Positions 180 through 61,690 of a stretch of 64,000 nucleotides of DNA are shown in pieces (the stretch's first letter is position 1; each line of letters opens with the position of its first letter). The notes under the pieces are model-generated. The model did no database searches and had not been told where the DNA came from. It saw only the letters and a program-made list of their open reading frames with translations. The DNA is taken from assembly GCA_030653975.1 (NCBI GenBank), contig JAURYH010000039.1, positions 1 through 64,000 of the forward strand, given 5' to 3'. Source of the stretch: Hydrogenophaga sp. Its GTDB lineage: Bacteria > Pseudomonadota > Gammaproteobacteria > Burkholderiales > Burkholderiaceae_C. Both the position numbers and the translations under genes were made by a program.

Positions 180-254
<75 letters not shown>

Positions 255-316
255 CAAGATACCCGGACAACCCGGACATCTCAGAAAACTTCACACATCC
301 AGCCATCAAAAGCACA

Positions 317-390
317 TGGAGCGGGAGACGGGAATCGAACCCGCGTGATCAGCTTGGAAGGCTGGAGTTCTACCATTGAACTACTCCCGC
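317..390 (-). tRNA. tRNA-Gly (anticodon TCC)
   Basis: This is a 74-nt tRNA on the reverse strand. The acceptor stem is GCGGGAG with CTCCCGC, the anticodon loop is CTTCCAA (anticodon TCC, Gly), the T-arm is GCGGGTTCGAATCCCGT, and CCA is encoded. It is the middle member of the Tyr-Gly-Thr-tuf array. The spacers to its neighbours are 62 and 82 bp. Confidence 0.97.
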
Positions 391-472
391 CCGAACCGTC
401 TTCACACCCACAAGGGCTTCCAACATTCAGAGCGCCTCGATCTCAATCGCTCGCACATCACTCATCGATCAC

Positions 473-558
473 TGGTGGAGGGGGCTGGATTCGAACCAGC
501 GTACGCGTAAGCGGGCAGATTTACAGTCTGCTGCCTTTAACCACTCGGCCACCCCTCC
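473..558 (-). tRNA. tRNA-Tyr (anticodon GTA)
   Basis: This is an 86-nt class II tRNA with a long variable arm on the reverse strand. The acceptor stem GGAGGGG pairs with CCCCTCC, the anticodon loop is CTGTAAA (anticodon GTA, Tyr), the variable arm follows the anticodon stem, and CCA is encoded. It is the first gene of the tRNA-tuf array, so the promoter should lie in the short gap between 559 and the ung stop at 616. Confidence 0.97.
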
Positions 559-17840: not shown

Positions 17841-17890
17841 GAGCCCCCCAGGGGGACCACGCCCTTGGACCGGCAAAGCCGGATCACCGG
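17841..17890 (-). repeat. C-family palindromic repeat, copy 1
   Basis: This is a minus-oriented copy of a repeat also present at 54841-54920, 58657-58707 and 61641-61690. It holds the palindrome CCGGCTTTGCCGG-like core (here ACCGGCAAAGCCGG) next to CCCCCC/GGGGG arms. It follows the CZB stop by a few bases and could serve as a transcription terminator. Confidence 0.75.
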
Positions 17891-17968
17891 CGTGTGCTGG
17901 GCGCGCGCCAGCATTTTCGCCATTTGCAGAGCGGGCTCACACGCGGTGAACGGGCGCGGCAAACGGGC

Positions 17969-19972: not shown

Positions 19973-20434
19973 ATGAACACCAACGAGCCGACTTTGAACG
20001 CCGAAGCCCCGGCCATTGCCACGCTGATGGAGCGCGGCGAGCTGTTCGCGGCCGAGTGCCCCTCGCGCGCCGTGCTGCAGCACGTGACCAGCCGCTGGGG
20101 CGTGCTGGTGCTGGTGGCGCTGCTGGCGGGCACGCACCGCTTCAGCGACCTGCGCCGCAAGATCGGCGGCGTGAGCGAGAAGATGCTGGCGCAGACGCTG
20201 CAGTGGCTGGAGGGCGATGGTTTCGTGCTGCGCACGCAATACCCTGTTGTGCCGCCACACGTGGAATACAGCCTCACGCCCATGGGCGTGGAGGTGGCGC
20301 GTCAGGTGGAGGGTCTGGCGGACTGGATCGAGGTCAACCTCGGCCGCATCCTGAGCGGGCGGCGCGAGCGGGCCGATGCGCTGGCGACCCAGCCGCTGCC
20401 CGGCGTGCGCGGCGGTGTGCGGACACCGGCATGA
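19973..20434 (+). CDS. HxlR-family transcriptional regulator (YtfH type)
   Basis: This is a 153-residue winged-HTH regulator. CPSRAVLQHVTSRWGVLVLVALLAGTHRFSDLRR is the HxlR signature helix-turn-helix with the N-terminal Cys (about 29) often used for quinone/electrophile sensing. ISEKML-type segment GGVSEKMLAQTLQWLEGDGFVLR and YSLTPMGVEVARQ follow. It is divergent from qorB, its probable target. Start ATG 19973. The stop TGA overlaps the ATG of a 66-bp repeat that follows directly. Confidence 0.9.
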   Translation: MNTNEPTLNAEAPAIATLMERGELFAAECPSRAVLQHVTSRWGVLVLVALLAGTHRFSDLRRKIGGVSEKMLAQTLQWLEGDGFVLRTQYPVVPPHVEYSLTPMGVEVARQVEGLADWIEVNLGRILSGRRERADALATQPLPGVRGGVRTPA

Positions 20435-20496
20435 GCGCCGCGCCGGGCCGTTCCCAAGCAAGCTCGCACCGCAGCCCGCAGGGCGAAGGTACTCCA
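20431..20496 (+). repeat. Start-codon repeat, type A, copy 1 (66 bp)
   Basis: The unit begins with ATGAGC at the hxlR stop (ATGA overlap) and ends just before GTGAGC, 66 bp later. Its core GCCGGGCCGTTCCCAAGCAA and the segment CTCGCACCGCAGCCC recur on the minus strand at 45066-45131 with the same length. The end carries GAAGG seven bases before GTG, a Shine-Dalgarno sequence plus start codon. It is followed head-to-tail by a type B unit, and its reading frame runs into that unit. Confidence 0.85.
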
Positions 20497-20561
20497 GTGA
20501 GCGCCGCCCGGCCGCTCCGAAGGCGCTCGGCCCCGCAGTGCGCAGCACGGAGGGTAGTCCG
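20497..20561 (+). repeat. Start-codon repeat, type B, copy 1 (65 bp)
   Basis: This 65-bp unit starts GTGAGCGCCGCCCGG and ends GGAGGGTAGTCCG just before the GTG start of the next gene. It matches 53143-53207 base for base except a few substitutions. It carries a strong Shine-Dalgarno (GGAGGG) eight to nine bases before GTG. The mini-frame that enters from the ATG at 20431 ends at TGA 20563-20565, overlapping that GTG. Confidence 0.85.
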
Positions 20562-20807
20562 GTGAACACAGCGCCGGGACCCTTGAGTCTGCGGCCTGTC
20601 AACGAGGGCGTGTTCGCCGTGCTGGACGCCGCCGGCCAGCACGTGGGCAACCTCAAGCGCATCGGCGCGGTGTGGAAGTTCAAGGCCGTGGGCAGCACGG
20701 CACAGGGCGAGAACGTGCCCGGCGGCGGACCGCTGACGGAGCGGCACAACACGGCGTTTGAGCGGCCGGACCCGGCCGAGGTGAGCGCCGGCTTGCTGGC
20801 GGGCTGA
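20562..20807 (+). CDS. Hypothetical 81-residue protein
   Basis: This begins at a GTG supplied by the edge of a type B repeat with SD GGAGGG, and reads MNTAPGPLSLRPVNEGVFAV. The body (VLDAAGQHVGNLKRIGAVWKF, KAVG, GENVPGGGPLTERHN) is polar with no membrane segment or signal peptide. I do not recognise a family. It follows hxlR on the same strand with only the two repeats between, so it may be co-transcribed. Its translation seems to depend on the repeat-borne initiation site. Confidence 0.6.
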   Translation: MNTAPGPLSLRPVNEGVFAVLDAAGQHVGNLKRIGAVWKFKAVGSTAQGENVPGGGPLTERHNTAFERPDPAEVSAGLLAG

Positions 20808-23004: not shown

Positions 23005-23013
23005 GGTGCGTAT

Positions 23014-23089
23014 CGCCGCCGGGCCGCCCCAAGGCGAAACAGCCGCCTCGGGGGGCAGCGACCCGCGAAGCGGCGGAGCGTGGGGGTCA
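23014..23089 (+). repeat. R-family GC-rich palindromic repeat, copy 1
   Basis: This copy starts CGCCGCCGGGCCGCCCC, holds the palindromes CCTCGGGGGG and CCGCGAAGCGG, and ends GGAGCGTGGGGGTCA. The last bases of the repeat form the rpoN stop codon on the other strand. The family recurs at 24769-24844, 24850-24898 (short) and, inverted, 57379-57444. Confidence 0.85.
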
Positions 23090-24736
23090 TAACGACTTCC
23101 TAAGGTTGGCCGGTGCGATGCGCAGTGCCTCGCGGTACTTGGCCACGGTGCGGCGCGCGCATTCGATGCCCTGCTCCTTGAGCAGGTCGGAGAGCTGGTT
23201 GTCCGACAGCGGCTTCTTCGGATCTTCCGAGGCGATGAACTGCTTGAGCAGGGCGCGTACCGCGGTGCTGGACGCGTTGCCGCCGGTTTCGGTGCCGAGC
23301 GAAGAGCCGAAGAAGTACTTGAGCTCGTAGGTGCCGAAGGGCGTGGCCATGTACTTGGCGGTGGTCACGCGGCTGATGGTGGACTCGTGCAGGCCGAGCT
23401 CGTCGGCGATCTCGCGCAGCACCAGCGGGCGCATGGCGAGCTCACCGTGCATGAAGAAGTTGCGCTGGCGTTCGACGATGGCCGAGGACACGCGCAGGAT
23501 GGTGTCGAAGCGCTGCTGGATGTTCTTGATGAACCAGCGCGCTTCCTGCAGTCGCTGCTGCATGGCAGCGTGGCCGGCTTCGCCGCCGTTGTCCCGGCCG
23601 CCGCGGTTTTGCCGCATGGCGTTGGCGTACACGTCGTGCACGCGCAGGCGCGGCATCACGTCGGGGTTGAGGATGACCTTGAAGCCCCGGCCGGCGCGTG
23701 TGACGATGACGTCGGGCACAACCACGTTGCGCTCGACATCGATGAAACGGCGCCCGGGTTTGGGTTCCAGCCGGGCGATGATGGCCAGCGCGGCGCGGGC
23801 GGTTTCATCGTCGATGCCGCACAGGGCACACAGGCGCTTGATGTCGCGTTTGGCCACCAGCTCCATGGACTGGTTGCAGATGGCGAGCGCCGCGCGCGCT
23901 TCGGGGGAGTTGCGCAGCTCCTCGATCTGCAGCCGCAGGCATTCGCCGAGGTTGCGCGCGCCCACGCCGGTGGGCTCCATGTGCTGCAGCCAGCCCAGGG
24001 CCATGCGCAGCTGCGCTTCAACGGCCTCCAGCTCTTCGATGGCCGGCGAGGCGGCCTCGCGACCGTGCATGAGCCGCCAGAAGCCGAGGGCGAGTTCGGC
24101 CATGTCGTCTTCGAGGTAGGCATCGTCGTTGAGCGATTCGATGAGGAAATACAGCGCCGCGGCGTCCTCGTCGCTCAGGCGCAGGCAGCGGGCCTGCTCG
24201 TGCAGGTGGTCCTGCAGGCTGACGGGACTGCGGGCCAGGTCGGCTGCGCTGGCGGTTTCGTCGTCGCCACCGGAGCCGCTGTTGCGCGCCGGTGCGTCGC
24301 CGCCCCATTCGCTGTCGTCGGGCGCCATCTCGACCGTGCCGTCGCCTTCCCAGCTCTCTTCGACCGGGGTGGCACCGTCAAGCCGGCTTTCAATTTCGTC
24401 GCCAGGGCCGCTGTCGGCGGGGGCGTCGGACGTGCTGCTGACGCGGTCGGTCAGCGGGCCGTCGTATTCGGCCGGCGCAGCCACGGCGTCGGCCACCGGC
24501 AGCGCGGCCTCGGCGATCTGTTCGCCGGCGCTCACCGGCGCATCGACCTGCTCCAGACCGAAAGCCTCGCGCTCGGCGATCTCTTCCGTGCGCTCCAGAA
24601 ACGGGTTTTCGTCGAGCATCTGCTCGACCTCCTGCGCCATTTCCAGCGTGGAGAGTTGCAGCAGACGGATCGATTGCTGCAACTGGGGCGTGAGCGCCAG
24701 GTGCTGCGATACACGCAGGGACAGGCCTTGCTTCAT
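23087..24736 (-). CDS. rpoN: RNA polymerase sigma-54 factor
   Basis: This is a 549-residue alternative sigma factor for enhancer-dependent promoters. Region I is Gln/Leu-rich (SLRVSQHLALTPQLQQSIRL), needed for activator response. Region II (about 50-150) is acidic and variable. The core-binding domain follows, then the HTH near ESTISRVTTAKYMATPFG, and the RpoN box ARRTVAKYRE at about 527-536. Start ATG 24736 (MKQGLSLRVS). It lies downstream of lptA-lptB, a conserved neighbourhood. Two R-family repeats separate it from lptB, and the stop codon lies at the edge of a third. Confidence 0.97.
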   Translation of the reverse strand: MKQGLSLRVSQHLALTPQLQQSIRLLQLSTLEMAQEVEQMLDENPFLERTEEIAEREAFGLEQVDAPVSAGEQIAEAALPVADAVAAPAEYDGPLTDRVSSTSDAPADSGPGDEIESRLDGATPVEESWEGDGTVEMAPDDSEWGGDAPARNSGSGGDDETASAADLARSPVSLQDHLHEQARCLRLSDEDAAALYFLIESLNDDAYLEDDMAELALGFWRLMHGREAASPAIEELEAVEAQLRMALGWLQHMEPTGVGARNLGECLRLQIEELRNSPEARAALAICNQSMELVAKRDIKRLCALCGIDDETARAALAIIARLEPKPGRRFIDVERNVVVPDVIVTRAGRGFKVILNPDVMPRLRVHDVYANAMRQNRGGRDNGGEAGHAAMQQRLQEARWFIKNIQQRFDTILRVSSAIVERQRNFFMHGELAMRPLVLREIADELGLHESTISRVTTAKYMATPFGTYELKYFFGSSLGTETGGNASSTAVRALLKQFIASEDPKKPLSDNQLSDLLKEQGIECARRTVAKYREALRIAPANLRKSL

Positions 24737-24768
24737 GCCAGAGCTTCCAGCAGCGCGAAACGGAGATT

Positions 24769-24844
24769 CGCCGCCGGGCCGCCCCAAGGCGAATCAGCCC
24801 CCTCGGGGGGCAGCGCGCCGCGCAGCGGGAAAGCGTGGGGGTCA
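24769..24844 (+). repeat. R-family GC-rich palindromic repeat, copy 2
   Basis: This near-identical copy of the element at 23014 lies between rpoN and lptB. It runs from CGCCGCCGGGCC through CCCCTCGGGGGG and GCCGCGCAGCGGG to GCGTGGGGGTCA. It is followed after five bases by a shorter copy, giving a tandem pair. Confidence 0.85.
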
Positions 24845-24849
24845 CAAGA

Positions 24850-24898
24850 CGCCGCCGGGCCGCCCCAAGGCGAATCAGCCCCCTCGGGGGGCAGCGAA
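24850..24898 (+). repeat. R-family repeat, copy 3 (truncated)
   Basis: The first 49 bases of the R element, through CCCCCTCGGGGGGCAGCGA; the second half with the CCGCGAAGCGG hairpin is missing. It sits in tandem behind copy 2 within the 193-bp lptB-rpoN gap. Confidence 0.8.
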
Positions 24899-24929
24899 GT
24901 ACATGAAATGACAGGCGTGGTGGTCATGC

Positions 24930-45065: not shown

Positions 45066-45131
45066 GGGAGCACCTTCGCCCTCCGGGCTGCGGTGCGAGA
45101 TTGCTTGGGAACGGCCCGGCACGGTGCTCAT
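45066..45131 (-). repeat. Start-codon repeat, type A, copy 2 (66 bp)
   Basis: The unit begins (minus strand) ATGAGCACCGTGCCGGGCCG, 10 bp after the CoA-transferase stop, and ends just before the GTG start of the HMG-CoA lyase gene. Length and core are identical to the copy at 20431. It supplies GAAGG about seven bases before GTG. The unit is in frame with the lyase. Confidence 0.85.
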
Positions 45132-52913: not shown

Positions 52914-53146
52914 TGGGCTGGCTGGACCGCTTCCCGCTGGTCTGGCTGGCGGTCATCGCCATCTGGCTGGCCGTGGCACCGGTGCTGCCCGAGCCGCACC
53001 TGATCGAAAAGCTGCGCCTGCTGTCGCAGGGCACGCTCACCCGGCCGCTCGACATCTTCGACCTGGCTTTGCACAGCGTGCCGCCGATCTTGCTGGCGCT
53101 GCGCCTGTGGCGCGACGCCCGGCGCCGCCGCAAGCCGCGCCCATGA
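52913..53146 (+). CDS. Small membrane protein
   Basis: This is a 77-residue protein starting MGWLDRFPLVWLAVIAIWLAV with one or two hydrophobic helices (9-25 and about 51-62, LALHSVPPILLALRL) and a strongly basic tail RDARRRRKPRP. I recognise no family. It is coupled to the CWC gene by TGATG and followed directly by a type B repeat whose ATG overlaps its TGA, so it belongs to the CWC-MFS plus-strand transcript. Confidence 0.7.
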   Translation: MGWLDRFPLVWLAVIAIWLAVAPVLPEPHLIEKLRLLSQGTLTRPLDIFDLALHSVPPILLALRLWRDARRRRKPRP

Positions 53147-53207
53147 GCGCCGCCCGACCGTTCCGAAGGCGCTCAGCCCCGCAGTGCGAAGCACGGAGGG
53201 TAGTCCA
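53143..53207 (+). repeat. Start-codon repeat, type B, copy 2 (65 bp)
   Basis: The unit starts ATGAGCGCCGCCCGACCG overlapping the upstream stop (ATGA) and ends GGAGGGTAGTCCA just before the GTG start of the MFS gene. Same length as the copy at 20497. It encodes a 22-codon mini-frame whose TGA (53209-53211) overlaps the MFS GTG (GTGA), with SD GGAGGG inside it. Confidence 0.85.
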
Positions 53208-54701
53208 GTGAGCGCCCCCCAAGCCGACCACTCCATCACCGCGCTGCGCGAGCGCTATGGCGAGCGCTACCGCTGGCTGCTGCTGCTCTCGGTGATGGTG
53301 GGCACCATGGCGGCCATCATGTCGTCGACCGTCATCAACGTGGCGATCCCCGACATGAGCCAGCACTTCACGCTCGGCCAGGAACGCGCGCAGTGGGTCA
53401 CCTCGGGCTTCATGGCCGCCATGACCGTGTCGATGCTGACCACGCCCTGGCTGCTGGCGCGCTACGGCTACCGGCGCACCTACTCGGGCTGCATGTGGCT
53501 GCTGATGGCCGGTGGCGTGGCCGGCGGCTTCGCCAACGACTTCCCGCTGGTGCTCGCCGCGCGCGTGGCCGAAGGCCTGGCGGCGGGCGTGGTGCAACCC
53601 ATTCCGGCCATCATCATCCTGCGCGCCTTCGAACCGAGCGAGCAGGGCCGCGCCAGCGGCGTCTTCGGCATGGGCGTGGTGCTGGCGCCGGCCATCGGCC
53701 CCAGCATCGGCGGCCTGCTGGTGGACGGCTTCGGCTGGCGCTCGATCTTCTTCATGGTGGTGCCGTTCTGCATCGCGTCGCTCTGGCTGGCACAGCGCTT
53801 CGTGCCCGGCACGGCACCGGGGGGTGGCGCCGCCAACACCCAGGGCGCCGGGCTGGACTGGCGCGGTCTGCTGCTGGCCTCCGCGGGTACGCTCTGCCTG
53901 CTCAATGGCCTGGTCGAGCTGCAGGGTGGCACGGCCGCCAGCGCCGCCCTGCTGGGCGGCGCGGCGCTGGCCCTGCTGCTGTTCGTCTGGCTGCAGCGGC
54001 GCACGCTCAAGCGCCGGCTGCGGCGACCCGACGAGGGCACCGAGCCGCTGATGAACCTCTCGCTGTTTGCCGACCGGCGCTTCGCCATGGGCAGCATCGT
54101 GGCGTTCATCTACGGCATCGCACTGTTCGGCTCGACCTACCTGCTGCCGGTCTACATGCAGATGGGGCTGGGGCTCTCGCCCTCCTACGTGGGCAGCATC
54201 CTGCTGCCGGCGGGCCTGGTGCTGGCGGTCACCATCGCCATCGTCGGGCGCCTGGCCGACCGCCAGCCCACGCACCGGCTGGTGAGCATCGGGCTGGTGC
54301 TGCTGGCGGCCTCGTTCGCGCTCATGTTCACGATCGACCTGCGCCGGCCCAGCCACATCATCCCGCTGCTGGTGACCTGGGCGATCCTGGGCCGCATCGG
54401 TCTCGGTTTCATCCTGCCCTCGCTCAACATCGGCGCCATGCGCGGCCTGGACCGCACGCACATCCCGCAGGGGTCGAGCGTGATCAACTTCCTGCGCATG
54501 CTGGGCGGTGCCGCGGGCGTCAGCCTGTGCGGCATCGTGCTCGAATGGCGCGTCACCGCCCACGGCTTCCGGCTCGACACGGCCCACCCCAGCCCGGAGC
54601 GGCTGGCCGCGTTTGACGAGACCTTCGGGCTGCTGGCGGCGATCTGCGCGCTGGCCCTGGTCGCCGCGTGGCGACTGCGTGCGGAACGCGCGGTTGACTG
54701 A
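53208..54701 (+). CDS. MFS drug:H+ antiporter, DHA2 (EmrB/QacA) family
   Basis: This is a 497-residue, probably 14-helix inner-membrane pump. Motif A-like LARYGYRRTYSGC, motif D1 MAAIMSSTVINVAIPDMSQHF and the antiporter motif C GVVLAPAIGPSIGGLLVDGFGWRSIFF are clear. Helix loops MARLADRQPTHRLVSIG-type segment RLADRQPTHRL follows helix 8. Substrates of DHA2 pumps are lipophilic drugs or bile/fatty acids. The start is the GTG provided by the preceding repeat (GGAGGGTAGTCCAGTG). No emrA partner gene is adjacent. Confidence 0.9.
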   Translation: MSAPQADHSITALRERYGERYRWLLLLSVMVGTMAAIMSSTVINVAIPDMSQHFTLGQERAQWVTSGFMAAMTVSMLTTPWLLARYGYRRTYSGCMWLLMAGGVAGGFANDFPLVLAARVAEGLAAGVVQPIPAIIILRAFEPSEQGRASGVFGMGVVLAPAIGPSIGGLLVDGFGWRSIFFMVVPFCIASLWLAQRFVPGTAPGGGAANTQGAGLDWRGLLLASAGTLCLLNGLVELQGGTAASAALLGGAALALLLFVWLQRRTLKRRLRRPDEGTEPLMNLSLFADRRFAMGSIVAFIYGIALFGSTYLLPVYMQMGLGLSPSYVGSILLPAGLVLAVTIAIVGRLADRQPTHRLVSIGLVLLAASFALMFTIDLRRPSHIIPLLVTWAILGRIGLGFILPSLNIGAMRGLDRTHIPQGSSVINFLRMLGGAAGVSLCGIVLEWRVTAHGFRLDTAHPSPERLAAFDETFGLLAAICALALVAAWRLRAERAVD

Positions 54702-54920
54702 TCTGCGGTGGACCTGCGCAACCCGACAAAAGCGGTGCCCCACAACGACCTGTCCGCCGCACAATAGACCCTTCACCATTCATAGGCCTCCAGCCCGAGG
54801 TGCAGCGTCGGAGCGAGGGTGTCCCTCCTCCAGCACACGCCGTGGAACCGGCTTTGCCGGGCCACAGGGCGTGGTCCCCCCTTCCAGGGGGGAAGCCGCG
54901 CAGCGGCGCAGGGGGGTCGC
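54702..54920. other. Noncoding gap with C-family repeat
   Basis: From the MFS stop to the MITE there is no credible gene. 54841-54920 is a C-family repeat. The part before it (54702-54840) shows no clear promoter, hairpin or ORF. Confidence 0.6.
54841..54920 (+). repeat. C-family palindromic repeat, copy 2
   Basis: The copy reads GTGGAACCGGCTTTGCCGGG, CCACAGGGCGTGGTCCCCCC, TTCCAGGGGGGAAGCCGCGC and AGCGGCGCAGGGGGGTCGC in sequence. It is the longest copy here, with three nested palindromes. It ends where the MITE begins. Confidence 0.75.
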
Positions 54921-55192
54921 TTAGGGCCTGTCCACACTGTTATTCCAAGATGCGTTGCGGATCAAAAAAACCATGCGCAAGGCGCGAAACGCAGCCGGGG
55001 TCGCCCCCCGGCAAGGCTTCGCAACGCCGCGCATGGCCTTTTTGGCCTCAACCCGAAGGGAATGGGTTGAAAACAGCGCCACTCGTTGTTGCACGCCTAG
55101 GCCAGACACCCGGTCTGGCCGTCGTCGCGCGCCTAGATGGGCGCTGTTTTCAACCCATTCGCACTTGGAATAACAGTGTGGACAGGCCCTAA
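54921..55192. mobile_element. MITE with perfect 29-bp terminal inverted repeats
   Basis: This is a 272-bp non-coding element. Its ends are perfect 29-bp inverted repeats (54921-54949 and 55164-55192, beginning TTAGGGCCTGTCCACACTGT). If the outer TA is a target duplication (TTA before, TAA after), the element proper is 54924-55189 and starts GGGCC. A second inverted repeat (GAATGGGTTGAAAACAGCGCC and its complement) lies inside, near 55060-55160. There is no transposase gene. TA duplication fits IS5- or IS630-type transposases. The right end touches the ATG of the next gene. Confidence 0.85.
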
Positions 55193-55969
55193 ATGTGCCA
55201 ACTGCTCGGACTCAACTGCGCCACCCCCACCGACGCCTCGTTCAGCTTCACCGGCTTCTGCCAGCGCGGTGGTGGAACCGACCACCACGCTGACGGCTGG
55301 GGCATTGCTTTCTTCGAGGGCCGCGGCCTGCGGCTGTTTGTGGACCACCAGAGCGCGGCCCGGTCGCCGATGGCCGGGTTCCTGCAAAGCTACCCGCTCA
55401 AGAGCCGCAACATCATCGCCCACGTGCGCAAGGCCACCATCGGCGAGGTGGCACTGGAAAACGCCCACCCGTTCTCGCGCGAACTCTGGGGCCGCCACTG
55501 GGTGTTTGCCCACAACGGTGACCTGAAAGACTACTTTCCCCACCTGCACAGCCACTTCCAGCCCATCGGCAGCACCGACAGCGAACGCGCGTTCTGCTGG
55601 CTGATGCAGGAACTCTCCAAATCCCACGCCAGCCTCCCCAGCACCGAAGAGCTCACGCTCACGTTGCGTGAACTCGTGCCCCAGGTGCGCCACTTCGGCA
55701 GCTTCAATTTCCTGCTCTCCAACGGCGAGGCGCTGTGGGCCCACTGCAGCACCAGGCTGCACTGGCTGGTGCGCCAGCACCCGTTTGCGCCAGCCACCCT
55801 GATGGACCGCGACTGGACCGTCAACTTTGCCGAACTCAACCACCCCGGTGACCGGGCAGCGGTGATCGTCACCACGCCCCTCACCCACAACGAAACCTGG
55901 ACCGCCTTCGAGCCCGACGAGCTCAAGGTGTTCGTGGACGGCCTGCCCGTGCTGGAGAAGAGCGCTTGA
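55193..55969 (+). CDS. Class II glutamine amidotransferase (YafJ-like)
   Basis: This is a 258-residue Ntn-type glutamine amidotransferase. The nucleophile Cys is residue 2 (MCQLLGLN). [30 protein letters not shown] and the oxyanion segment VFAHNGDL are conserved, and [16 protein letters not shown] follows. The protein lacks a synthase partner domain. YafJ-type members are stand-alone and of unknown acceptor. The ATG is directly at the end of the MITE, so its native ribosome-binding site has been replaced by MITE sequence. Confidence 0.9.
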
Positions 55970-57087: not shown

Positions 57088-57474
57088 TTAAGTGCGACCC
57101 CGTGCACCACCGGCCCGCCGCTCTTCGCGCAGCATGAAAAGGTACAGGCCTTCGACCTTCTCGCGCGCCCACGGCGTCTTGCGCAGAAAGCGCAGGCTGG
57201 AACCCACGCTCGGGTCCACGTTGAAGCAGCGCACCGGAATACGCTGGCCCAATTCTTCCCAGCCGTAGTGGTCGGCCAGCGCGGTGACGATGGCCTCCAG
57301 CGTCAGGCCGTGCAGCGGGTTGCGCGCCTGGAATGCATCGGCGCCCCCAAGCGTCTTCCCGCTTTGCGCGGGAATCCGGGGCTCCGCCGCTTCGCGGGTC
57401 GCTGCCCCCCGAGGGGGCTGGCCTTGCTTGGGGCGGCCCGGCGCTGCGGCCGCGGCGTCGTCTTCTTCCGTCAT
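57088..57474 (-). CDS. VF530 (DUF2132) protein with repeat-derived N-terminal insert
   Basis: This is a 128-residue protein. From about residue 50 it is a normal VF530/DUF2132 domain ([59 protein letters not shown]). Residues about 12-33 ([20 protein letters not shown]) are translated R-family repeat (57379-57444). VF530 proteins are otherwise about 70-90 residues, so the N-terminal 48 residues are an addition. The ATG overlaps the gshB stop on the same strand. Function of the family is unknown. Confidence 0.85.
57379..57444 (-). repeat. R-family repeat, copy 4, inside a coding sequence
   Basis: This is an inverted copy of the GC-rich R element (CGCCGGGCCGCCCCAAGCAA, GCCCCCTCGGGGGGCAGCGA, CCCGCGAAGCGGCGGAGC on the minus strand). 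It is in frame in the VF530 gene and carries no stop in that frame. The terminal GTGGGGGTCA part of the element is missing. Confidence 0.85.
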
Positions 57475-61545: not shown

Positions 61546-61640
61546 GGTGCGATTTTCGCACCTTGCCCAACACCATGCGCCCACCACTGTCCGACTTCGA
61601 ATCAGCGACGAGGACAAAGCGGCATGCACCCACGCACACG

Positions 61641-61690
61641 CCGAGGAAACGGCTTCGCCGGGCCAAAGGCGTGGTCCCCTGGGAAGGGAG
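61641..61690 (+). repeat. C-family palindromic repeat, copy 4
   Basis: CGAGGAAACGGCTTCGCCGG, GCCAAAGGCGTGGTCCCCTG, GGAAGGGAG in order. It lies just before the holA stop (61693) and may end holA transcription. Confidence 0.7.

What the first reader, a model, noticed from the sequence alone, without database searches (positions are those of the whole stretch)
20431..20564. A repeat that carries a start codon at one end and SD plus GTG start of the next gene at the other
Two units stand in tandem here (66 bp type A at 20431, 65 bp type B at 20497). Single units lie at 45066-45131 (A, minus strand) and 53143-53207 (B). Each lies between co-directional genes. It begins ATGAGC, GTGAGC at an internal tandem joint, overlapping the upstream stop as ATGA (20431, 53143) or 10 bp after it (45131). 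It ends with a purine-rich SD and GTG, the start codon of the next gene (GTGAGC or GTGAAC). Lengths are exactly conserved within each type. A and B share a skeleton (ATGAGCGCC, CCGTTCC, CGCAG, CTCC before GTG), so they look like diverged forms of one element. Type B encodes a 22-codon mini-frame whose TGA overlaps the downstream GTG (GTGA), so translation could pass from gene to mini-ORF to gene. Type A is in frame (66 bp) and could add 22 residues. The shared TGAGC at both ends could be a target duplication. This would be a mobile translation-initiation cassette, which I do not know from the literature.
Basis: partly seen in the sequence, partly recalled or inferred. Interest (0 to 1): 0.78.

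Follow-up and report, generated by a model that had tools for sequence, protein, structure and literature searches.

The report
Mobile repeat inserted at start codons
A 65-66 base-pair repeat, scattered by the dozen through some Hydrogenophaga genomes, has jumped into genes exactly at their start codon and brings a ribosome-binding sequence and a second start codon with it, which may let a gene be interrupted at its very first letters without being switched off.

Summary
The unit is a family: 38 units read in this genome (Hydrogenophaga, Comamonadaceae), 111 in a relative, and matches in 18 of 141 genera sampled in the family. In four genomes, 96 of 105 confidently called arrays lie between co-directional genes, in gene orientation; in 71 of 96 the upstream stop is the unit's own 5' NTGA, and in 81 of 96 the next start codon is its 3' end. 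Seven other genera agree (28 of 29; 24 and 24 of 28). At 12 of 14 sites read, including all three in the window, relatives carry the gene start without the unit: precise insertions at start codons. The target is NTGA, mostly NTGAGC, present on both sides afterwards, which fits tandem arrays. A Shine-Dalgarno-like core precedes the second start in 164 of 170 units, against 60 of 151 first starts. Length is mostly 66 (frame stays open) or 65 (TGA overlaps the second start); the third frame is rare (6 of 170). One conserved hairpin shows compensatory changes. No mobilising enzyme was found and translation was not measured. My searches found no published description; the published BRE repeat could not be compared.

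The parts
20431..20496 (+). Type A unit, 66 bp, first of a tandem A-B array; starts ATGAGC, whose TGA (20432-20434) is the stop of the upstream HxlR-type regulator gene
   Evidence: empty site in G051, G073, G068, G040, G054 and G008
20497..20561 (+). Type B unit, 65 bp, second of the array; starts GTGAGC, ends with GGAGG before GTG 20562
   Evidence: the G062 contig begins inside a B at this gene and G079 has a diverged A
20431..20565 (+). 44-codon frame through A and B, ending in the TGA that overlaps GTG 20562
20562..20807 (+). Downstream small gene without a Pfam match, start GTGAAC at the 3' end of the array
45066..45131 (-). Type A unit, 66 bp, at the start codon of an HMGL-like gene, 10 bp after the stop of a CoA-transferase family III gene; in frame, so native ATG 45131 would add 22 residues
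44145..45065 (-). HMGL-like gene, start GTGAGC at the 3' end of the unit
53143..53207 (+). Type B unit, 65 bp, at an overlapping stop-start; mini-frame of 22 codons ending in the TGA that overlaps GTG 53208
53208..54701 (+). MFS transporter gene, start GTGAGC at the 3' end of the unit

Best explanation
A and B are diverged forms of one very small non-autonomous mobile element that inserts into start codons of the form NTGA, mostly NTGAGC (Met-Ser). Shown: insertion puts about 60-61 bp between two copies of (N)TGA(GC), so that the upstream gene keeps its TGA stop, a start codon remains at the 5' end, and a second start (usually GTG) stands at the 3' end. Shown: the unit carries a Shine-Dalgarno-like core, mostly 7-8 nt before the second start, and is mostly either 66 bp with an open frame into the gene or 65 bp with a mini-frame whose TGA overlaps the second start. 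Shown: arrays of up to four units exist, some of mixed type, as expected if each insertion recreates the target. Inferred: the insertion is translationally transparent. Ribosomes either read through (22 extra residues) or stop and restart at the overlap using the unit's Shine-Dalgarno, so operon coupling survives and such insertions escape purging. Inferred: an enzyme encoded elsewhere recognises the conserved hairpins and the NTGAGC target.
For: Empty sites exactly at the start codon in relatives: 3 of 3 window sites and 12 of 14 own sites read (a 13th has matches across the joint that were not read); 11 of these 12 show NTGAGC in at least one relative. The HMGL-like start hit by an A here carries a B in G073, behind another upstream sequence. 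Position: of 105 confident arrays in 4 genomes, 96 co-directional in gene orientation, 2 fully opposite; 71 of 96 with the upstream stop at the 5' NTGA, 81 of 96 with an in-frame start at the 3' end (both within 1 nt), 62 of 96 both. Crude background: 10 of 50 co-directional pairs of the window with an NTGA overlap, binomial p 7e-30. Seven further genera: 28 of 29 co-directional; 24, 24 and 20 of 28. GC after the 3' NTGA: 77 of 111 vs 3 of 31, p 2e-9. SD-like core by one rule: second start 164 of 170 units, first start 60 of 151 arrays. Length modulo 3: 73, 91 and 6 of 170 for frames 0, 2 and 1; 72 of the 73 stay open through the second start, 90 of the 91 end in the overlapping TGA. Compensatory changes: 13 cells, 0 of 500 shuffles as high; 4 cells, 1 of 500. 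Plasmid annotation: V. paradoxus CDS ends at 1508, next starts at 1570; Diaphorobacter pDCB2 1506 and 1568.
Against: No mobilising enzyme found; unit ends are not inverted repeats of each other; no longer relative with the same ends was seen, but no dedicated search was made. No expression data. The 65/66 classes may partly reflect founder lengths (29 of 43 A-65 units share one deletion). Second start lost: over all 17 rows no link with an in-frame first start (p 0.59); over the 9 that I picked by hand as destroyed codons, 6 of 9 against 40 of 119, p 0.07. Third-position excess in A-66: p 0.055. For A, the number of pairs with a change on both sides is 3 against 1.5 in shuffles (28 of 500). 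Four window units do not fold clearly better than shuffles (z -1.6 to +1.0). Of 150 arrays, 31 had weak gene calls and 14 lay at contig edges. In 2 of 4 annotated plasmid sites the upstream gene is not co-directional.
Confidence: 0.78

Rival explanations
1. An element that inserts at any NTGAGC in the genome; only insertions at start codons survive because those are harmless. No start-codon recognition and no function for the host.
For: The target motif is asymmetric and mostly NTGAGC, which fixes orientation; the unit preserves reading. Most [AG]TGAGC in the window lie inside genes (104 of the 115 outside the units), where insertion would be purged.
Against: Outside the units the window has 8 intergenic [AG]TGAGC against 3 at starts, so harmless non-start sites should be common among copies; yet 81 of 96 are at starts. 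Crude gene calls and small numbers.
Confidence: 0.4
2. Host-recruited translation signals: units are kept because they add a Shine-Dalgarno and improve coupling of overlapping genes.
For: SD-like core before the second start in 164 of 170 units vs 60 of 151 first starts; preference for overlapping gene pairs.
Against: Related species lack the unit at the same genes, and 20 of 67 genus genomes (13 of 44 good ones) show no A match at E<=1e-8 (B was not counted there), so the genes do not need it.
Confidence: 0.2
3. A hairpin-recognised single-strand element moved by the RAYT-like (Y1) transposase.
For: Conserved hairpins, ends that are not inverted repeats, insertion next to a short motif. A Y1 transposase gene is present in 58 of 67 genus genomes.
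Against: No A, B or C unit in 15 loci around the Y1 gene; the gene is present also in genomes without A matches; no orientation bias to replication (10 of 22 and 20 of 34 leading).
Confidence: 0.15
4. Ordinary conserved N-terminal coding sequence or intergenic spacer inherited with the genes.
For: Open frame with a recurring peptide, MSAAPGRSQASSHRSPQGEGTPVS, in type A.
Against: Genes behind the three window units are unrelated; orthologues lack the unit cleanly.
Confidence: 0.01

Closest known systems
Rickettsia palindromic elements (RPE)
   Same: Small dispersed element with an open frame, found fused in frame in genes (passages of PMC10969869 and PMC2229807).
   Different: RPE are about 150 bp and lie in genes or between them; here 65-66 bp, at start codons, with a start codon and a Shine-Dalgarno-like core supplied.
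Bacterial MITEs (ERIC/RU-1, Correia/NEMIS, RUP)
   Same: Short, non-autonomous, mobile, some with open frames fused to genes (passages).
   Different: No terminal inverted repeats here; orientation and start-codon placement nearly fixed.
REP elements and RAYT transposases
   Same: Hairpin repeats between genes in many copies (passages of PMC2817692).
   Different: REPs flank their transposase gene; A/B units do not in 15 loci.
Beta-proteobacterial repeat element, BRE (Hot et al. 2011, PMC3110155)
   Same: 75-91 bp and 69% GC in Bordetella, tandem with no or few bases between, counted also in Comamonadaceae (Polaromonas, Acidovorax, Delftia, Rhodoferax); some overlap ORF ends (section 14 read).
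   Different: Longer; section 14 states no start-codon rule. Its letters are in a figure and a supplement that I could not see, so identity with A, B or type C was not tested.
IS200/IS605-derived elements
   Same: No terminal inverted repeats, hairpins, no large target duplication (insertion beside a short motif is recalled).
   Different: No transposase with these ends seen; no replication-strand bias.

Membership tests
MITE | Short, without a gene for its own movement, mobile | tested here: met
   65-66 bp; presence/absence between relatives
MITE | Terminal inverted repeats | tested here: not met
   by inspection of the consensus: the two ends are not inverted copies; hairpins are internal
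MITE | Target site duplication | tested here: inconclusive
   TGA(GC) on both sides fits duplication or insertion 3' of NTGA
MITE | Autonomous relative with the same ends | not tested
   none noticed among listed matches (lists cut); no dedicated search
REP/RAYT | Repeats flank the RAYT gene | tested here: not met
   0 of 15 Y1-transposase loci from 14 genomes
REP/RAYT | Copy number follows presence of the cognate RAYT | tested here: inconclusive
   Y1 gene in 58 of 67 genomes, A matches in 47 of 67
IS200/IS605-like | Hairpins, no terminal inverted repeats, no large target duplication | tested here: met
IS200/IS605-like | Strand bias to replication (recalled as a feature) | tested here: not met
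   leading 10 of 22 (G073) and 20 of 34 (G050), ori taken at dnaA
IS200/IS605-like | Y1 transposase acts on it | not testable with these tools
   needs biochemistry
RPE | In-frame open insertion | tested here: inconclusive
   72 of 123 A units are in frame 0, only 1 of 47 B units
BRE | Sequence match to the published repeat | not testable with these tools
   letters in a figure and a supplement not available here

The most novel reading that the evidence does not exclude
A mobile element whose insertion machinery recognises translation start sites: a start-codon cassette that carries its own mini-frame, Shine-Dalgarno, hairpin and new start, and that adds either a 22-residue N-terminal tag or a hairpin-controlled restart to dozens of unrelated genes.
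Probability: 0.35. Interest if true: 0.88.

Novelty: new variant of a known kind. Interest (0 to 1): 0.77.

Why it matters
Mobile elements usually persist by landing in spare DNA, by keeping a frame open, or by splicing out. This one lands on start codons and appears to hand back a working start. It offers natural, repeated experiments in translational coupling (gene starts with 0, 1, 2, 3 or 4 units), may affect which gene starts are annotated in Comamonadaceae, and raises a testable question: how can a DNA insertion find start codons?

Tried and rejected
Rfam: only three tRNAs in the window at gathering scores. Phages and, for one exact type-A pattern, viral contigs: nothing. Y1 transposase as mover: not linked. 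Replication-strand bias: none. Tandem arrays made only by duplication: rejected as sole cause, because mixed arrays (AB, BA, AAB, AAAB) exist; A units of one G008 array are only slightly more alike than others (0.910 vs 0.875). Codon-phase constraint in A-66: borderline. Loss of the second start only where the first is in frame: p 0.59 on all 17 rows, p 0.07 on 9 picked by hand. Type C repeat: looked at briefly. Ten paper searches listed no paper that I recognised as describing such an element; I saw passages of four papers, passages and one section of a fifth, and only listings of the rest.

Rows dropped: the place lists were cut, so the census covers listed matches; of the merged sites I used 32 of 33 (own genome), 23 of 23 (G073), 34 of 34 (G050) and 60 of 62 (G008). 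Model alignments used 16 of the 19 printed A cores (three repeats of the same letters left out) and 11 of 12 B cores (one chimera left out). The structure counts used 32 A and 20 of 22 picked B units, two A-headed chimeras left out. The empty-site test used 14 of the 33 own arrays (full units, confident genes, both TGAs found); at one of them (L014) the script cut the left flank three bases early.

Full report
What is in the window. The A-B pair at 20431-20561 stands between an HxlR-type regulator gene and a small gene without a Pfam match; the single A at 45131-45066 between a CoA-transferase III gene and an HMGL-like gene; the single B at 53143-53207 before an MFS transporter gene. The A at 45131 reads in frame into the gene; the B at 53143 encodes 22 codons and a TGA overlapping GTG 53208; the A-B pair reads as 44 codons ending in the TGA overlapping GTG 20562.

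A family of repeats. A BLAST of the pair found 43 rows in the own genome, 37 at E<=1e-5. Models built from unit cores only, without the terminal ATGAGC and start codon so as not to prejudge the ends, gave for A and B 30 and 15 matches in the own genome, 24 and 11 in G073, 23 and 28 in G050, and 114 and 15 in G008 (A and B matches partly overlap). In the stretches that I fetched, 38, 26, 42 and 111 distinct units were read. In the genus, 47 of 67 genomes have an A match at E<=1e-8; in the family, 20 of 150 genomes and 18 of 141 genera at E<=1e-10, own genus included; in 16 genomes of other families of the order, 0 at E<=1e-6. The genus is Hydrogenophaga: same-genus handles G082, G057, G046 and G078 share letters with records named H. 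taeniospiralis, H. sp. 2FB, H. intermedia (MAG) and a Hydrogenophaga MAG, and G008 is MAG FW.011. Rhodoferax and Acidovorax MAG records also hold the type A pattern (list cut). Among plasmids, 5 of 72,556 records match: four Variovorax and one Diaphorobacter.

Position. I grouped the fetched sites into arrays and called reading frames on both sides with a codon model trained on the window. Of 150 arrays, 14 lay at contig edges and 31 had a weak call. Of the remaining 105, 96 lie between co-directional genes in the same orientation, 2 are fully opposite, 3 have an opposite downstream gene and 4 an opposite upstream gene. Of the 96, 71 have the upstream stop at the 5' NTGA, 81 have an in-frame start at the 3' end and 62 have both, each within 1 nt. 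A crude gene list of the window gives 10 NTGA overlaps in 50 co-directional pairs. In 41 arrays from seven other genera, 29 were confident: 28 co-directional, with 24, 24 and 20 of 28. Of four annotated plasmid sites, two show the full pattern (V. paradoxus: CDS ends 1508, next starts 1570; Diaphorobacter pDCB2: 1506 and 1568); in the two other Variovorax plasmids the unit stands at the start of a hydrolase gene and the upstream gene is on the other strand.

Empty sites. At 20431, G051, G073, G068, G040, G054 and G008 have the same pair with a plain ATGA or GTGA junction, G079 has a diverged A, and the G062 contig begins inside a B. At 45131, G070 and G062 have a plain ATG, while in G073 the same HMGL-like start carries a B, behind another upstream sequence: an independent hit on one start codon. 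At 53143, G062 and G076 have a plain GTGA overlap. I then took 14 of the 33 own arrays, joined their flanks without the unit and searched seven relatives. For 12 of 14 I read at least one relative with the uninterrupted site and the start codon exactly at the joint; for a 13th, one search lists matches across the joint in G062 and G073 that I did not read. At several of the sites some relatives give two pieces with a gap, as if filled. Eleven of the 12 show NTGAGC in some relative. After insertion the 5' side is ATGAGC in most (99 of 150 arrays, GTGAGC in 16) and the 3' side is NTGA followed by the native sequence. In two of the 12 (45131 and the L014 site) the TGA of the unit's 5' end is not the upstream stop, so the start codon, not the stop, is the common factor.

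Target. GC follows the 3' NTGA in 77 of 111 arrays against 3 of 31 ordinary NTGA starts in the window. Left/right first letters are A/G in 64, A/A in 31, G/G in 7, G/A in 6 and A/T in 3 of 111, so the right G probably belongs to the unit. The simplest reading is TGAGC duplicated around a 60-61 bp insert; insertion 3' of NTGA without duplication is not excluded. Each unit ends in a new target, which fits tandem arrays of up to four units, some mixed.

Reading logic. For the 170 of 217 units with an NTGA found at both ends, lengths are: A 66 in 69, 65 in 43 and others in 11 of 123; B 65 in 43 of 47. Modulo 3, 73 are in frame 0, 91 in frame 2 and 6 in frame 1. In 72 of the 73 the frame from the first start is open through the second; in 90 of the 91 the first stop is the TGA overlapping the second start. 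In seven other genera the lengths were 65 (13), 66 (14) and 63 (1). The 65-bp A class mostly shares one deletion (29 of 43), the rest having it elsewhere, so founder effects remain possible. By one rule, an SD-like core stands before the second start in 164 of 170 units and before the first start in 60 of 151 arrays; the commonest are AAGG at 7 nt (A) and GGAGG at 8 nt (B). These facts fit an insertion that lets translation pass. Weaker hints: third-position excess in A-66 (p 0.055), and destroyed second starts where the first is in frame (6 of 9 vs 40 of 119, p 0.07, picked by hand; all 17 rows p 0.59).

Structure. A and B can form two hairpins: TGAGC pairs with GCTC(A/G) around an inner stem, and a tip stem GCCC-NNN-GGGC or GTGC-NNN-GCAC follows. 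On 32 A units, 13 cells change on both sides and keep the pair (0 of 500 shuffles as high), though the number of such pairs is only 3 (28 of 500); on 20 B units, 4 cells in 4 pairs (1 of 500). Most of the A signal is in the tip stem and is shared by related units. Four window units do not fold clearly better than shuffles.

What moves it. Unknown. A Y1 transposase gene is nearly universal in the genus (58 of 67) but no unit lies in 15 loci around it. There is no replication-strand bias (10 of 22 and 20 of 34 leading). I noticed no longer element with these ends but made no dedicated search.

Known or not. RPE, MITEs, REP/RAYT and IS200/IS605 each share some features and each fails or leaves open a defining one (see membership test). 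The nearest published repeat by taxon and tandem habit is BRE (PMC3110155; section 14 read); its text reports copies usually between genes, some overlapping ORF ends, but no start-codon rule, and its letters were not available. Ten searches of the open-access library listed nothing that I recognised as describing an element inserted at start codons.

Judgement. Shown: a mobile repeat inserted precisely at NTGA(GC) start codons in many species and in several genera, leaving a stop-start overlap and a Shine-Dalgarno-like core. Inferred: that it is translationally transparent and that this is why it persists. Open: whether insertion itself recognises start codons or only survives there, and which enzyme acts.

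Noticed in passing
window 23013-23092, 24768-24847, 24849-24928, 57381-57443: A third repeat (type C, about 80 bp, CGCCGGGCCGCCCCAAG...CCCCCTCGGGGGGCAGCG) with a head like that of type A; read on the other strand some copies begin right after a TGA (6 of 15 distinct copies). It may be the published BRE or a relative (not tested).
   Followed up: partly
window 17852-17897, 54830-54864, 61634-61679: Another repeat with a palindromic core (GGACCGGCAAAGCCGG and like).
   Followed up: no
window 54908-55205: 42-nt inverted repeat (86%) with 214 nt between its arms, overlapping the start of an ORF at 55193-55969; may be the end of an insertion sequence.
   Followed up: no
L335 1697-1713 and 2527-2543: Inverted repeat TAATCGGGGTCAGATTC on both sides of the Y1 (RAYT-like) transposase gene of G050, perhaps its cognate repeat.
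   Followed up: no
L025 1489-1558, L030 1505-1566: Units with an A head and a B-like tail or tip stem, suggesting recombination between A and B.
   Followed up: partly
L384, L385 (G164): Tandem units with 63-bp spacing in another genus, also a multiple of three.
   Followed up: partly
L378, L383 (G124), L170 (G008): Arrays whose second start codon is destroyed while the preceding one is in frame, so the gene may be made only with an N-terminal extension.
   Followed up: partly
L153 (G073), around the HMGL-like gene start: The same start codon that carries an A in the window carries a B in G073, behind a different upstream sequence.
   Followed up: yes
window 183-558: Three tRNA genes in a row on the minus strand.
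   Followed up: no
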